In this document: positions 28,023-36,017 of the stretch, piece after piece
Numbering within the stretch: the stretch's first letter is position 1
Layout: each line of letters begins with the position of its first letter
Source: Pseudomonadota bacterium
GTDB taxonomy: Bacteria; Pseudomonadota; Alphaproteobacteria; Acetobacterales; Acetobacteraceae
Assembly: GCA_021845595.1 (NCBI GenBank)
Contig: JAJZVV010000012.1
Span: 1-64,000 of the forward strand
Length of the DNA stretch: 64,000 bases
Direction: 5' to 3'
Program-made: the position numbers and the translations under genes
The notes under the pieces: model-generated
What the model was told of the DNA's origin: nothing
The model's input: only the letters and a program-made list of their open reading frames with translations
The model's database searches: none

Positions 28023-29654
28023 ATGGGCCAGGGAGCGGTTTTTTCACGTGGGTTTGTATCGCTGTTTGTGTCAGCGACAGACCAGGAACTCAAGCCGATT
28101 GATCGGGCGCTACGCGGCTGCGACGATGCCTATGGCAGCGATGAGGTGGTTCTCCATTGCGCCGAGCGGTTATCGGAATGCGCCGCTCGCATCGGCATGG
28201 CCGCGGAGAAGATTGGCCGCGAACAGGGAGAAACTGTTGGCTGCGACGATCCGCAGTCCGGCCTCGCGGCAGGTGCGCTGTTGCGGGCCGGGGCCAGCCT
28301 TCCGCGGCGGACGACATTGATCGAACTCGAACAGCGTGTGGTCGAGGCATTGGGCGGCAAGGAACGCCTGGAGCCTGCGCAGCAATTGGCCGTCGCCGTG
28401 GCACGATTGCGCCGGACTCGTCTCGAACGTGCGGCCTATTGGGGCTTGGACGTGCCAGTCAAAAGAGTGGAGATACCAATGAATGAGGGCGAGGATAGCG
28501 GATCATTTTACAATATCTTCAAAATTGTTATGGAGAAAATTGGCCAACATATGCCATTAGAGCTTTTTGAACAAGAGCTTGCAAAAGGCAAAAAGCTTAT
28601 GGGCAAGGTCAATATTCTGATCGCCGGACAGACTGGCGTCGGCAAGAGTTCGCTCATTAACGCGATTTTCGGCGAGGACATTGCAAAGGTCGGCGTCGGC
28701 CGGCCCGTGACCACGAACATCGAATGGTTCAGTCCGCCCGATCTTCCCGTTCAGCTATGCGATACGCGGGGCCTGGAGCTGAAGGAATTCGCCGAGACGC
28801 TCGCCGCACTGGAAAAGGAAATCGCGGTGCGCTCGGAGAAGGGAGATCCGGCGGAGCGGGTCCATATCCTCTGGCTGTGCATTTCCGGACGGCAGACCCG
28901 GGTGCAGCAGGGCGCCGAAGGCGCGGTGCTCGACCTCTGCAGCAAATACGGCATTCCGGGCGTCGTGGTCATTACTCAATCCACGGATCGCATGAGCGAA
29001 AGGGTGGAAGCGGAAGCCAAAGCGATCTTGCCGAGCGCAAAGGCTTTTGTACGGGTATTGGCGCAGCGCTGGGACGACAGCGATCCGCCCGTACCACCGC
29101 ATGGTCTCCAGACGCTCGTGGAGGTCACGAGTGCACTGATCCCAGAGGCGGTGCGGAACGCGTTCATTTCGGCGCAGCTCATCGATCTCGAAAAAAAGAG
29201 AAAGCAAGCCTTCGGCATTGCGCAGACAGGCGGGATTTCGGCTGCGGCTGGCGCGGCAACACCCGTTCCGGGCGCATCAGAAGCCTTAGTCTTTACCGCC
29301 ATCGTGGCCATGGTCGTGCGCATTGCCTTGGCGATGGGCGTGCCCGTGAGTCGCGACAACCTTACGCCGCTCGTGTCCGCGATGATCGCCTCTTTGCTGA
29401 CGGCGCTCGTCATCCGCCTTGGCGCCGGCGAAGGCCTCAAATTCCTCCTGGGGCCCGGCAGTGTAGCCGGCGGGCTCATCAACGCTGGCATAGCTGGTGC
29501 CGCCGCCTACGGGCTCGGGTGCGCGTTCATCGAGTACCTGACCCAGTTCCTCATCGAACACCACCGGATGCCCACGGGCGACGAGCTGAGCGCCGGGTTC
29601 CCCGAGTTCTGGAAGAACAGGCCGGACAAAACCAGGGATCTGCCCGGAACCTGA
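28023..29654 (+). CDS. GTPase-DUF697 membrane-associated protein
   Basis: 543 residues from the ATG at 28023. The G domain has P-loop GQTGVGKSS (residues 202-210), a GRPVTTNIEW switch I, G3 as DTRG and a G4-like ITQSTD, in which TQ replaces the usual TK/NK. The C-terminal 150 residues are a DUF697-type segment: TPVPGASEALVFTAIVAMV, then GPGSVAGGLINAGIAGAAAYGLG and IEYLTQF, likely membrane-inserting hairpins. An ATG at 28479 with GGAG six bases upstream would give a 391-residue protein starting just before the G domain, so the helical N-terminal part may be untranslated or a separate feature. Related GTPase-DUF697 proteins are uncharacterised. Confidence 0.75.
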   Translation: MGQGAVFSRGFVSLFVSATDQELKPIDRALRGCDDAYGSDEVVLHCAERLSECAARIGMAAEKIGREQGETVGCDDPQSGLAAGALLRAGASLPRRTTLIELEQRVVEALGGKERLEPAQQLAVAVARLRRTRLERAAYWGLDVPVKRVEIPMNEGEDSGSFYNIFKIVMEKIGQHMPLELFEQELAKGKKLMGKVNILIAGQTGVGKSSLINAIFGEDIAKVGVGRPVTTNIEWFSPPDLPVQLCDTRGLELKEFAETLAALEKEIAVRSEKGDPAERVHILWLCISGRQTRVQQGAEGAVLDLCSKYGIPGVVVITQSTDRMSERVEAEAKAILPSAKAFVRVLAQRWDDSDPPVPPHGLQTLVEVTSALIPEAVRNAFISAQLIDLEKKRKQAFGIAQTGGISAAAGAATPVPGASEALVFTAIVAMVVRIALAMGVPVSRDNLTPLVSAMIASLLTALVIRLGAGEGLKFLLGPGSVAGGLINAGIAGAAAYGLGCAFIEYLTQFLIEHHRMPTGDELSAGFPEFWKNRPDKTRDLPGT

Positions 29655-32068: not shown

Positions 32069-32163
32069 AAAAACGCATCAACGTCTCATCAAGTGAATAT
32101 GCCAGACCGCCGCCCGGATTGACAGAGGCTTTCGCTCCGCCGGCCCGATGCGCGGACACATCT

Positions 32164-32183
32164 CGTTCACCATTGGGGGCGTA
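32164..32183 (+). promoter_or_regulatory. Duplicated upstream element, copy A
   Basis: CGTTCACCATTGGGGGCGTA ends 37 bases before the ATG of the first tandem paralogue. The second paralogue has an 18/20 match at the identical distance. A TTGACA (32119-32124) lies farther upstream without a good -10. It is probably an operator or promoter element retained through duplication. Confidence 0.45.
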
Positions 32184-32220
32184 TCCAGGATTTCGGTAGG
32201 GAAACAGGAGCGAGGCCGCG

Positions 32221-33279
32221 ATGGCGGGTGGCTGGCTGGTCGGCGGGTTGGTCCGCAGTGTTCTGACCCGGCGCAAGGCGCGCAGCGCGGCGGTGCCATT
32301 CGAATCCGGACCGCTGCGCATGGCGCGTGTCGCCGAGGATGAGCGTCACGGCATGGTGGCCGTGTTGCGGGATTTCGCCGGCAGTTGCGCACGCTTCACC
32401 GTACCCTGGGCCGATCTGCCCGACACCGTGCCGATGAGCGAGCGTGACGCCGTACTGCACAAGGTGGTGAACGAGACGAAGGCGGTGACGCCGGCGGCGA
32501 TGCGCGCGGCGGTCGCGCAGGTCGCGCTCGCCGGCCTGTTCGGCCCGGAGGCCAAGGCGCAGGCGGCAGCGGAGGCGCAGAGCGATGGGCAGCGGGAACG
32601 CGAACTGCACGCCGTGCTGATCTTCCACCTGCTGGATGCCAGCCAGACGGACGTGCGGGCGCTGGTCGAGACCCCGTCGGGGCGCCACGCCAAGACGGCG
32701 GTGAACGATGCGGCCAGCGCCCTTGGCATTCGGCGCAGCGACATTTTCGTGCGCACCGGGGAATTGGCGAAGCGCCTTCTGCCGGTTGGCTTCGCTGCTG
32801 GCACGGGCCCGCTCGCCGCGGGCTGGCTGCGCGTTGTGCATCGCGAGGTCGCCGAGCTGAACCAGCGCCTGAACACAAGGCTCGCCGATGCGGATGCCGA
32901 GCTGGTGCCTGACCTGCGTGCCGCGATGGAAGTCAGCGCCGCCACGGTGCGCGCCTCTGCCCACCTGCTCGGGCTCATCGACGGCGCCGTCCTCGGGATC
33001 GGCGCGACGGTGCGGCAATGGGAGACGGCGCAGCCCGCGCTCACCCACATGATCGACAAGCTCTCCGACATTCTCGACGAATGGGGCGGTCTGATCCCGG
33101 AGGCGCAGGACGCGCTGCGCGCCCCGGCCGGGGAACTCGCGCCCCGGCTGCGCCGCCTGCGCGCGCTGCTCCCCGCGCCGCCAGCGGCCGCGGGAGAGGC
33201 GGACGCCAGCGGCGCCGTCTCGACGGAACTCGGCGAGCGGCTGCACGGCATCTGGTCGAACCTGAACAAGGACGCCTGA
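32221..33279 (+). CDS. Uncharacterised protein, tandem paralogue A
   Basis: 352 residues, soluble, mostly alpha-helical by composition, with no signal peptide and no recognisable nucleotide motif. Conserved blocks shared with its neighbour include RSAAVPFE, AEDERHG, LRDFAG, CAR, VPWADLP, AVTPAAM, ELHAVLIFH, RRSDIF/RRSEIY, LPVGFAA, GWLR, VLDEW/ILDEW, GLIPEA and RLRRLRALLP. About two thirds of the first 67 positions match the next gene. ACAGGAG lies 10 bases before the ATG. I do not recognise a family. Its frame is intact, and duplication with retention argues for selected function. Confidence 0.8.
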   Translation: MAGGWLVGGLVRSVLTRRKARSAAVPFESGPLRMARVAEDERHGMVAVLRDFAGSCARFTVPWADLPDTVPMSERDAVLHKVVNETKAVTPAAMRAAVAQVALAGLFGPEAKAQAAAEAQSDGQRERELHAVLIFHLLDASQTDVRALVETPSGRHAKTAVNDAASALGIRRSDIFVRTGELAKRLLPVGFAAGTGPLAAGWLRVVHREVAELNQRLNTRLADADAELVPDLRAAMEVSAATVRASAHLLGLIDGAVLGIGATVRQWETAQPALTHMIDKLSDILDEWGGLIPEAQDALRAPAGELAPRLRRLRALLPAPPAAAGEADASGAVSTELGERLHGIWSNLNKDA

Positions 33280-33335
33280 AAAGCGACGCCTGAAGCGGGG
33301 CAAGCGCGGCTTGGGTGAGGGCGCGAATCATGTCC

Positions 33336-33355
33336 CGTTCATCATTGGCGGCGTA
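33336..33355 (+). promoter_or_regulatory. Duplicated upstream element, copy B
   Basis: CGTTCATCATTGGCGGCGTA matches copy A at 18 of 20 positions and also ends exactly 37 bases before the start codon, so element and spacing were both conserved after duplication. Confidence 0.45.
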
Positions 33356-33392
33356 GGGTCGGGTCGAGCTTAACGGTCGGAGCAGGGCCACG

Positions 33393-34544
33393 ATGGTCGG
33401 CAGCTGGCGGGTCGGAGGCATCGTCGGCAGCATGCTTCGCCGGCGCGAGCCGCGGAGCGCGGCGGTTCCGTTCGAGCACGAGGTTCTGCGCCTGGCCCGC
33501 GCGGCGGAGGATGAGCGTCACGGGCTGGTGGCGATCCTGCGCGACTTCGCCGGCAATTGCGCCCGCTACCTGGTGCCCTGGGCGGATCTGCCCAAGATGG
33601 TCCGGTTTGGCCCGGGCGACGCCGCGCTCCATGGCGCGGTGGAGGAAGCGCAGGCGGTGACGCCGGCAGCGATGATGGCGGTGGTGCACAAGGTGGCGCT
33701 GTCCGGCGCGCTGGGTGCCGCGGCCAAGGCCGGCGCGCGCGCGACCGAACAAGCGGAAGGCAAGCGCGAGCGGGATCTTCACGCCGTCCTGATTTTCCAT
33801 GCCCTGAGGGCGAGCCGGGCCGATCTCGGCGGGCTGCTGGCCGCGACCGCCCGCGGGGCTCCCGGGCTCGACTCGTCCCTGCGGCGCGACGCCCAGGTTG
33901 CGGTCCGCACCGCCGCCGCCGCGCTCGGGCTGCGGCGCAGCGAAATCTACGACCGCACCGCCGCGCTCAGCCACGGCGTGCTGCCGGTCGGGTTCGCCGC
34001 CACCGACGGGCCGATCGCGCGCGGCTGGCTGCGCACGCTGCAGCACGAGGTCACCGGGCTGCATCGGCACATGCGGGACCGGCTCGCCGAGATGCCCACG
34101 GATCTGGCCACCGACCTGCGGGTCGCCGCCGAGATCAGCCAGATGACGCTCGAGGCCACCGCGCCGATGTTCGGCGCGGTCGATCGGGCCGTGCTCAACA
34201 TCGGTGCGACCATGCGCGACTGGGACAAGGCGCAGCCCACGCTGGCCGGCACGGTCGACACGCTGTCGAGCGTGCTCGACGAATGGGCGGGGCTGATCCC
34301 GGAGGCGCGGGCGACGCTGCGCGCGCCGATCGGCGAAATGGGGCCGCGCCTCCGCCGGCTGCGCGCCTTGCTGCCGCCGGGCGCGCTCGTCGCCGGAGCC
34401 GGCGGGCTCGGCGAGGCGCCGCGGCGGGAGATGGCCCTGGTCGGCGGCGGTTCGCGCGGCGGCGATGTCCGGCGCGACGAAGCGGTCGGGGCGACTGTCG
34501 CCGAACAGCTCGGCACCATCTGGCGCGCGCTCGACGGCGGCTGA
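33393..34544 (+). CDS. Uncharacterised protein, tandem paralogue B
   Basis: 383 residues, a paralogue of the gene at 32221-33279 along its whole length, with a longer Gly/Arg-rich linker (GGGSRGGDVRRDEA) before the conserved C-terminus (ELGERLHGIW in A, VAEQLGTIWRAL in B). It is helical and soluble, with no catalytic motif seen. GGAGCAGGG precedes the ATG. 113 bp separate it from paralogue A, and that gap contains its own copy of the upstream element, so it can probably be transcribed independently. Confidence 0.8.
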   Translation: MVGSWRVGGIVGSMLRRREPRSAAVPFEHEVLRLARAAEDERHGLVAILRDFAGNCARYLVPWADLPKMVRFGPGDAALHGAVEEAQAVTPAAMMAVVHKVALSGALGAAAKAGARATEQAEGKRERDLHAVLIFHALRASRADLGGLLAATARGAPGLDSSLRRDAQVAVRTAAAALGLRRSEIYDRTAALSHGVLPVGFAATDGPIARGWLRTLQHEVTGLHRHMRDRLAEMPTDLATDLRVAAEISQMTLEATAPMFGAVDRAVLNIGATMRDWDKAQPTLAGTVDTLSSVLDEWAGLIPEARATLRAPIGEMGPRLRRLRALLPPGALVAGAGGLGEAPRREMALVGGGSRGGDVRRDEAVGATVAEQLGTIWRALDGG

Positions 34545-34613: not shown

Positions 34614-36017
34614 TTGAGCACCGCGACGACGACGACGCCCGCCGACGCCGAGGCTGCCCGCGCGCAGGCGCTGCGCGAGCTGATTCTCCGCGCCGAGCAG
34701 GCGATGGTTGCCAAGCGCTTCAACGAGGCGGCCGGCATCTGCCAGGATGTGCTGGAAGCGACGCCGGACCATCCCCCGGCGCTGGCGCTGCTCGGCGGCA
34801 TCATCGGCCATCGCGGCGACGTCACGCGCGGCGTGGCCATGCTCGAGCGCGCCATCGGGCGCGATCGCTCGGTGGCGGCCTGGTTCAGCAATCTCAGCGG
34901 CCTCTACCGCATGCAGTACCGGCTCGAGGAGGCAACGGCGGCGGCGCGCGAGGCGGTGCGGCTGCAGCCGCAGGCGCCGCGCTTCCTGGTCAATCTCGGC
35001 AAGTCGCTGATCGATCAGGGCGAGCGCGACGAGGCGCTGACCGCCTTCCTGATGGCGCTGGCACGCGAGCCGGCCAATGCGGAGGCGCACCTGGCGATCG
35101 GCCAGATTCTGCTCGCGCGCGGCGAGTGGCGGCCTGGTTGGCTCGAATATGAATGGCGCAACCAGCTCGAACAGGCCAAGGGCATGCTGCCGCCGATGAC
35201 GGCGCCGGCCTGGAACGGCATGCGGCTGCCGGCTGGGCGCATCCTGCTCGTCGGCGATCAGGGTTACGGCGATACCATCCAGTTCTGCCGCTTCATCCCC
35301 GCCGTCGCCGAGCGCTGCCAGGAGGTCGTGCTCGGCTGCAGCCCCGATCTCGCCCCGCTGCTCGCCAAGCTGCCGGGCGTGGCGCAGTGCCATAGCCGCT
35401 GGAACGAGATCCCGCCACACGCGGTGCATTGCCTGCTCTCCAGCCTGCCGCATCTGCTCGAGATCACCGAGGCGACCATCCCTGCGCGCGTGCCCTATCT
35501 CGCCGCCGATGCCGGTGATGTCGCGCTGTGGCAGGCGCGGCTCGCCGGCCAGCGGGGGCCGCGCGTCGGCATCGCCTGGGCCGGTCGCCCGACCCATCCC
35601 AACGACCGGCGGCGCTCGCTCGCCCTCGCCGACCTCGCCGCCATCGGGCAGATTCCCGACCTCACGTTCGTGTCGCTGCAGAAAATCGTTCCTGACCGGG
35701 ACAAGCCGGCGCTGGCCGGGATTCTCCCCGGCCTCGTCGACCACACCGATCTGCTCACGGATTTCGCGCAGACGGCGGCGCTGATCGCCAATCTCGATCT
35801 GGTGGTGACGGTGGATACGGCCGTCGCCCATCTCGCCGGCGCGCTCGGCAAGACGGTCTGGGTGATGCTCGCCGACCCGGCGGACTGGCGCTGGATGCTC
35901 GGGCGGACCGACACGGCCTGGTATCCGACGATGCGCTTTTTCCGTCAGCCCCGCCCCGGCGACTGGGCCAGCGTGGCCGACGCGGTGGCCAGGGCGCTGG
36001 CCGCGCTGCCGCGCTGA
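34614..36017 (+). CDS. TPR protein with C-terminal glycosyltransferase-9/ADP-heptose-like domain
   Basis: 467 residues. Residues 20-170 hold four or five TPR units (ALREL..AEQAMVAKRFNEAAGICQDVL, FLVNLGKSLIDQGERDEALTAFL). The C-terminal half has a GT-B-like domain: LVGDQGYGDTIQFCRFIP, PRVGIAWAGRPTHPNDRRRSL and VVTVDTAVAHLAGALGKTVWVML, the arrangement common in TPR/glycosyltransferase fusions. The start is a TTG (34614-34616) with AGGAG eight bases upstream; no earlier ATG fits. The target is unknown; protein or surface-glycan glycosylation is plausible beside the Hint protein and the sugar genes that follow. Confidence 0.8.
   Translation: MSTATTTTPADAEAARAQALRELILRAEQAMVAKRFNEAAGICQDVLEATPDHPPALALLGGIIGHRGDVTRGVAMLERAIGRDRSVAAWFSNLSGLYRMQYRLEEATAAAREAVRLQPQAPRFLVNLGKSLIDQGERDEALTAFLMALAREPANAEAHLAIGQILLARGEWRPGWLEYEWRNQLEQAKGMLPPMTAPAWNGMRLPAGRILLVGDQGYGDTIQFCRFIPAVAERCQEVVLGCSPDLAPLLAKLPGVAQCHSRWNEIPPHAVHCLLSSLPHLLEITEATIPARVPYLAADAGDVALWQARLAGQRGPRVGIAWAGRPTHPNDRRRSLALADLAAIGQIPDLTFVSLQKIVPDRDKPALAGILPGLVDHTDLLTDFAQTAALIANLDLVVTVDTAVAHLAGALGKTVWVMLADPADWRWMLGRTDTAWYPTMRFFRQPRPGDWASVADAVARALAALPR

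What the first reader, a model, noticed from the sequence alone, without database searches (positions are those of the whole stretch)
32146..34544. Tandem pair of uncharacterised paralogues
Two adjacent genes (352 and 383 residues) align along their length with blocks such as RSAAVPFE, AEDERHG, VPWADLP, AVTPAAM, LPVGFAA and GLIPEA, and match at about two thirds of their first 67 residues by eye. I recognise no family. Both frames are intact after divergence, which suggests paired or specialised roles, perhaps a hetero-oligomer. They sit between a Hint surface-type protein and a TPR/glycosyltransferase-like protein.
Basis: partly seen in the sequence, partly recalled or inferred. Interest (0 to 1): 0.6.

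Follow-up and report, generated by a model that had tools for sequence, protein, structure and literature searches.

The report
Orphan twins of an undescribed family
Two neighbouring bacterial genes are intact copies from a branch of a large, apparently undescribed protein family that is normally paired with a second unknown protein and occurs mostly in bacteria with flagella; what the family does is not yet known.

Summary
Two adjacent intact genes (352 and 383 aa) are 54% identical (E 6e-105), and both are under purifying selection. They match nothing useful in Pfam, NCBIfam, PHROGs, PADLOC or the PDB, by sequence or fold. They belong to a divergent branch (A') of a family, A, spread through Acetobacteraceae, Azospirillum and other Alphaproteobacteria. 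Ordinary A genes are followed directly by, or fused to, a second undescribed family, B (69 of 84 genes), so A and B very likely form a complex. A' has no B beside it, lacks A's conserved C-terminal segment, and persists in genomes where no B was found. The tandem A' pair was found only in the window's genus (3 of 3 genomes); eight other genomes carry one A'. A genes are enriched upstream for the CtrA box TTAA-N7-TTAA (19 of 91 against 1.4 expected), sit mostly in flagellated genomes (169 of 176), and in four genera lie near motAB. Best reading: A-B is a non-enzymatic cytoplasmic module of the CtrA/flagellate programme, and A' is a B-independent offshoot duplicated in this genus. Family, pairing and loss of B are shown. 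The function is inferred, and genome size confounds the flagellin link.

The parts
32221..33279 (+). Gene 1 of the pair (P0001, 352 aa), A' branch of family A
   Evidence: Intact ORF; A' profile 621 bits; dN/dS 0.04-0.16 against orthologues
33393..34544 (+). Gene 2 of the pair (P0002, 383 aa), A' branch of family A
   Evidence: Intact ORF; A' profile 600 bits; AlphaFold2 model pLDDT 84.4, pTM 0.80; dN/dS 0.08-0.18
32164..32183 (+). Shared upstream element of gene 1, holding TTCACCAT (32166-32173), one mismatch from a CtrA-like half-site TTAACCAT (the 8-base form is from memory)
   Evidence: Pattern search, genome-specific
33336..33355 (+). Shared upstream element of gene 2, holding TTCATCAT (33338-33345)
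   Evidence: Pattern search, genome-specific

Best explanation
SHOWN: the two genes are a genus-specific tandem duplication inside a clade (A') of an undescribed alphaproteobacterial protein family, A. Typical A genes are followed at once by a second undescribed family, B, or are fused to it. A' has no B next to it, lacks A's C-terminal DWRTG...ARNE segment, and persists in genomes where B was not found. INFERRED: A and B form a stable cytoplasmic complex without enzymatic activity (an adaptor or scaffold), expressed under CtrA-type control and serving the flagellated, motile or polar-development programme. A' proteins are offshoots that kept A's N-terminal sheet and helical body, work without B, and act alone, as homo- or hetero-oligomers of the two copies, or by competing with A for its target. 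The duplicates have separate upstream elements and have diverged under constraint, which fits specialised roles.
For: Family and B pairing: (65 of 84 A genes with B directly downstream, four fused). Fusions; fusion model pTM 0.80. A' clade support 100/100. In eleven A' genomes B is found only where a canonical A is found. CtrA box: 19 of 91 A genes against 1.4 +/- 1.0 in shuffles, and only at spacing 7; CtrA-like regulator in the genome, 58% identical. Flagellin in 145 of 152 A-positive Acetobacteraceae genomes and in 24 of 24 A-positive others. MotB near A in five loci of four genera. Purifying selection on both copies.
Against: The window genes have at most a CtrA half-site, not a full box. 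Most A-B loci are not near flagellar genes, and the own genome's is not. A-B contact is inferred from adjacency and fusion only. No interaction or phenotype is known.
Confidence: 0.4

Rival explanations
1. A-B belongs to a CtrA-linked cell-cycle, polarity or stress programme that merely occurs in flagellated, larger genomes; motility is incidental.
Against: MotB near A in four genera; flagellin nearly always present.
Confidence: 0.3
2. The two window proteins form an A'1-A'2 heterodimer that takes the place of the A-B complex.
For: Adjacent, diverged, both constrained; B absent beside them.
Against: A' and B are unrelated in sequence (for A against B); other A' genomes manage with one copy; the same genome still holds a canonical A-B.
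Confidence: 0.15
3. A recent duplication kept for dosage, without specialised roles.
For: Restricted to one genus; similar upstream elements.
Against: Only 54% identity and copies that diverged before the three species split; longer C-terminal tail in gene 2.
Confidence: 0.15
4. A-B is a toxin-antitoxin or defence module.
For: A tight bicistron of two unknown genes with patchy presence.
Against: No PADLOC match, no meaningful PHROG or phage match, a shared regulatory box.
Confidence: 0.04

Closest known systems
Azospirillum lipoferum 4B hypothetical proteins WP_014249635.1 (A) and WP_014249636.1 (B)
   Same: Adjacent A-B genes recognised by both profiles
   Different: Annotated only as hypothetical proteins; a B follows A, unlike in the window; no 20-bp window element was sought there
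MCE family (NCBIfam TIGR00996)
   Same: Weak match of P0001 residues 204-317, E 0.008, in a helical stretch
   Different: 15.3 bits against a cut-off of 140.5; not seen for P0002
CtrA regulon of Alphaproteobacteria (consensus TTAA-N7-TTAA, PMC11264516)
   Same: Box enriched upstream of family A, at spacing 7 only
   Different: Binding not tested; the window genes show no full box
FlmG flagellin glycosyltransferase (PMC7591256)
   Same: The next gene, 34614-36017, has TPRs plus a GT9-type domain
   Different: Not compared in sequence with FlmG; a lead only, and not part of the pair

Membership tests
Family A (defined here) | N-terminal VPF...AR...G...PW...D block and helical body | tested here: met
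   A profile 377 and 372 bits for the two proteins; invariant columns in alignments A1 and A3
Family A (defined here) | C-terminal DWRTG...RNE segment | tested here: not met
   Absent from the window proteins and the other A'
Family A (defined here) | B gene directly downstream | tested here: not met
   No B beside any of 12 A' genes
CtrA regulon | TTAA-N7-TTAA box upstream | tested here: inconclusive
   Met for family A statistically; only half-site-like octamers before the window genes
CtrA regulon | CtrA binding or CtrA-dependent expression | not testable with these tools
   Needs ChIP, EMSA or a ctrA mutant
MCE family (TIGR00996) | Score above the curated cut-off | tested here: not met
   15.3 bits against 140.5
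Any Pfam-A, PHROGs or PADLOC family | Match above cut-off or at E well below 0.001 | tested here: not met
   marginal single-member matches only (best YqiJ_OB, E 0.0014)
Any solved fold in the PDB | Foldseek match with significant E and TM-score | tested here: not met
   P0002 model: best E 0.08, TM to the query at most about 0.2; A-B fusion: best E 0.07
Known families by profile-profile comparison or AlphaFold DB folds | HHpred or cellular-fold match | not testable with these tools

The most novel reading that the evidence does not exclude
A and B are two new protein families with new folds that form a previously unknown CtrA-controlled complex of the alphaproteobacterial motility or polar-development programme, and A' proteins are B-free modulators of it, doubled in this genus.
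Probability: 0.3. Interest if true: 0.75.

Novelty: categorically new. Interest (0 to 1): 0.5.

Why it matters
A widespread, tightly coupled pair of protein families (A and B) in Alphaproteobacteria appears to have no name, no domain entry and no fold match in the libraries searched, yet carries a recognisable regulatory box and a statistical link to flagella. That makes it testable in tractable Azospirillum strains. The A' branch is a natural experiment in how a partner-dependent protein became partner-free and was then duplicated. 'Categorically new' is meant narrowly: the protein families match nothing tested here. Tandem duplication as such is ordinary, the function is unproven, and a remote known superfamily is not excluded.

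Tried and rejected
(1) PilZ-like reading of RxxxR...NxSGG in A (from memory): spacing wrong and no Pfam match. (2) MCE similarity: far below cut-off, helical region only. (3) A 1985-aa 'fusion' in G572: read-through of a long open frame; the real A-type gene starts near its end. (4) The stop inside the G014 A' match: it is the natural end of a 322-aa gene. (5) A and B as diverged copies of each other: profiles unrelated. (6) sigma-70 promoter in the intergenic stretches: none found. (7) A full CtrA box before the window genes: not found. (11) One literature search on the family found nothing, so the absence of a name rests mainly on the domain libraries and on 'hypothetical protein' labels. 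(12) Genus-wide significance of the flagellin link by Fisher test ignores phylogeny and genome size and is reported only as a lead.

Full report
OBSERVATION. The two ORFs are as described: 32221-33279 (352 aa) and 33393-34544 (383 aa), both on the + strand and intact. They align over 316 columns at 54% identity, E 6e-105. Upstream of both, at the same distance from the ATG, lies CGTTCAYCATTGGSGGCGTA. It is found nowhere else in the genome without mismatch, and 0.03 matches are expected by chance in the window. At 54% protein identity such a conserved non-coding stretch points to function (inference), and its presence before gene 2 suggests a separate promoter region there. The flanks are a Hint_2 protein on the other strand and a TPR/GT9-type protein downstream.

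CONSTRAINT. Nei-Gojobori comparisons with the orthologues in two genomes of the same genus give dN/dS 0.04-0.16 for gene 1 and 0.08-0.18 for gene 2; two flanking genes give 0.12 and 0.26. Neither copy is decaying. In the tree each copy groups with its own orthologues, so the duplication predates the split of the three species.

NO KNOWN FAMILY. hmmscan against Pfam-A, NCBIfam, PHROGs and PADLOC gave nothing beyond marginal matches. A profile search of PDB sequences gave only helical bundles, coiled coils and similar noise. A 63-sequence AlphaFold2 model of gene 2 is good (pLDDT 84.4, pTM 0.80): a small N-terminal beta-sheet, a body of long helices, a disordered linker and a last helix. Foldseek found no significant match in the PDB (best E 0.08, TM at most about 0.2) or among viral models. 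No library of predicted cellular structures was available, and HHpred-style searches could not be run.

A LARGER FAMILY. A single-sequence search already found distant relatives in other genera. The profile built from them finds members in 152 of 397 Acetobacteraceae genomes (few candidates were scored per genome, so absences are soft) and strong matches in 24 genomes of the class outside that family, as well as in Azospirillum and Indioceanicola replicons. I call the family A. Its hallmark is an N-terminal stretch of the form TFLERGVAVPFTTPxLxGARVR...NPSGGRGxYILPW...D and, in the canonical form, a C-terminal DWRTG...RNE.

THE PARTNER, B. In canonical loci A is followed at once by a second gene of about 400-480 aa, B, which also matches nothing and is unrelated to A. 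Of 84 non-A' genes inspected, 65 have B directly downstream and four are A-B fusions. Of the 15 others, four are second A copies that follow a B, two rows are one interrupted A gene with a B behind it (L058), and two lie at contig ends. The fusions belong to one genus, with four fused genes per genome in several species. One fusion models confidently as a whole (pLDDT 87.6, pTM 0.80), again without a PDB match. Near-constant adjacency plus fusion is strong indirect evidence for a physical complex; contact itself was not measured.

THE WINDOW PAIR IS THE B-FREE BRANCH. The pair falls in a clade, A', with 100/100 support, which in a wider quick tree sits among non-Acetobacteraceae A sequences rather than with the family's own canonical A (SH-aLRT 92, not decisive). 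A' lacks the DWRTG/ARNE end, and none of 12 A' genes has a B beside it. Across eleven genomes with A', the six that also hold a canonical A hold a B, and the five that do not hold none, with all candidates scored. Two of those five are at least 99% complete. So A' persists without B. In 397 Acetobacteraceae genomes, two A' side by side occur only in the three genomes of the window's genus; eight more carry one (one is a fragment at a contig end). One A', in G159, has lost an internal stretch.

REGULATION. A motif search upstream of 91 A genes gave TAAC-nnTTn-GTTCA, which resembles the CtrA site. I therefore tested the published consensus TTAA-N7-TTAA (PMC11264516). With at most one mismatch it lies upstream of 21% of A genes against 2% of other genes in the same loci, and only at a spacing of seven: other spacings from 3 to 12 give 0-4%. 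Markov shuffles give 1.4 +/- 1.0 against 19 observed. The test followed a look at the data, but consensus and spacing came from outside. The window genes themselves show only TTCACCAT and TTCATCAT.

FLAGELLA. Of 152 A-positive Acetobacteraceae genomes 145 have flagellin; of 245 without detected A, 177 do (Fisher p 1e-9, not corrected for phylogeny). In the rest of the class 24 of 24 A-positive genomes have flagellin, against 13 of 21 A-negative ones. Genome size confounds this: every A-negative class genome of 3.7 Mb or more in that set was also flagellated. MotB-like genes lie 2-3 kb from A in five loci of four genera, more than the roughly 0.4 I would expect for 85 loci (my own estimate), though the loci are not all independent.

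MECHANISM. Shown: the family, the A-B pairing, the independence of A' from B, and the constraint on both copies. Inferred: A-B is a cytoplasmic, non-enzymatic complex of the CtrA/flagellate programme, since no invariant residues look catalytic, no signal sequence or membrane segment was noticed by eye, and the fold is mostly helical. A' would be an autonomous offshoot. Whether the two window proteins bind each other is open.

VERDICT. The pair as such is a genus-level duplication; the more important fact is the larger A-B family behind it.

Noticed in passing
window 34614-36017 (+): TPR plus GT9-type protein next to the pair; a homologue of its C-terminus (63% identity) also lies near the canonical A-B of G014 (L073:3753-4061). 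The architecture recalls FlmG, the flagellin glycosyltransferase (PMC7591256), which would fit a motility link.
   Followed up: partly
window 28068-29654 (+): GTPase with MMR_HSR1 and a sub-threshold DUF697 match, function unclear.
   Followed up: no
L055 (G226:C19:66500-86400): Four A-B fusion genes in tandem in one genus, three of them diverged strongly from each other; a striking lineage-specific expansion.
   Followed up: partly
L099, L100, L101: A-B-A trios: a second, diverged A copy follows B.
   Followed up: partly
L150, L152, L153, L155 (Azospirillum-type loci): A third small gene of about 124 aa follows A-B, without a Pfam match.
   Followed up: no
L163:2750-8593, L173:5147-6409, L174:6030-7247, L192, L193: A further divergent A-type subgroup without a detected B in other alphaproteobacteria; in L163 a short gene overlaps its stop codon.
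   Followed up: partly
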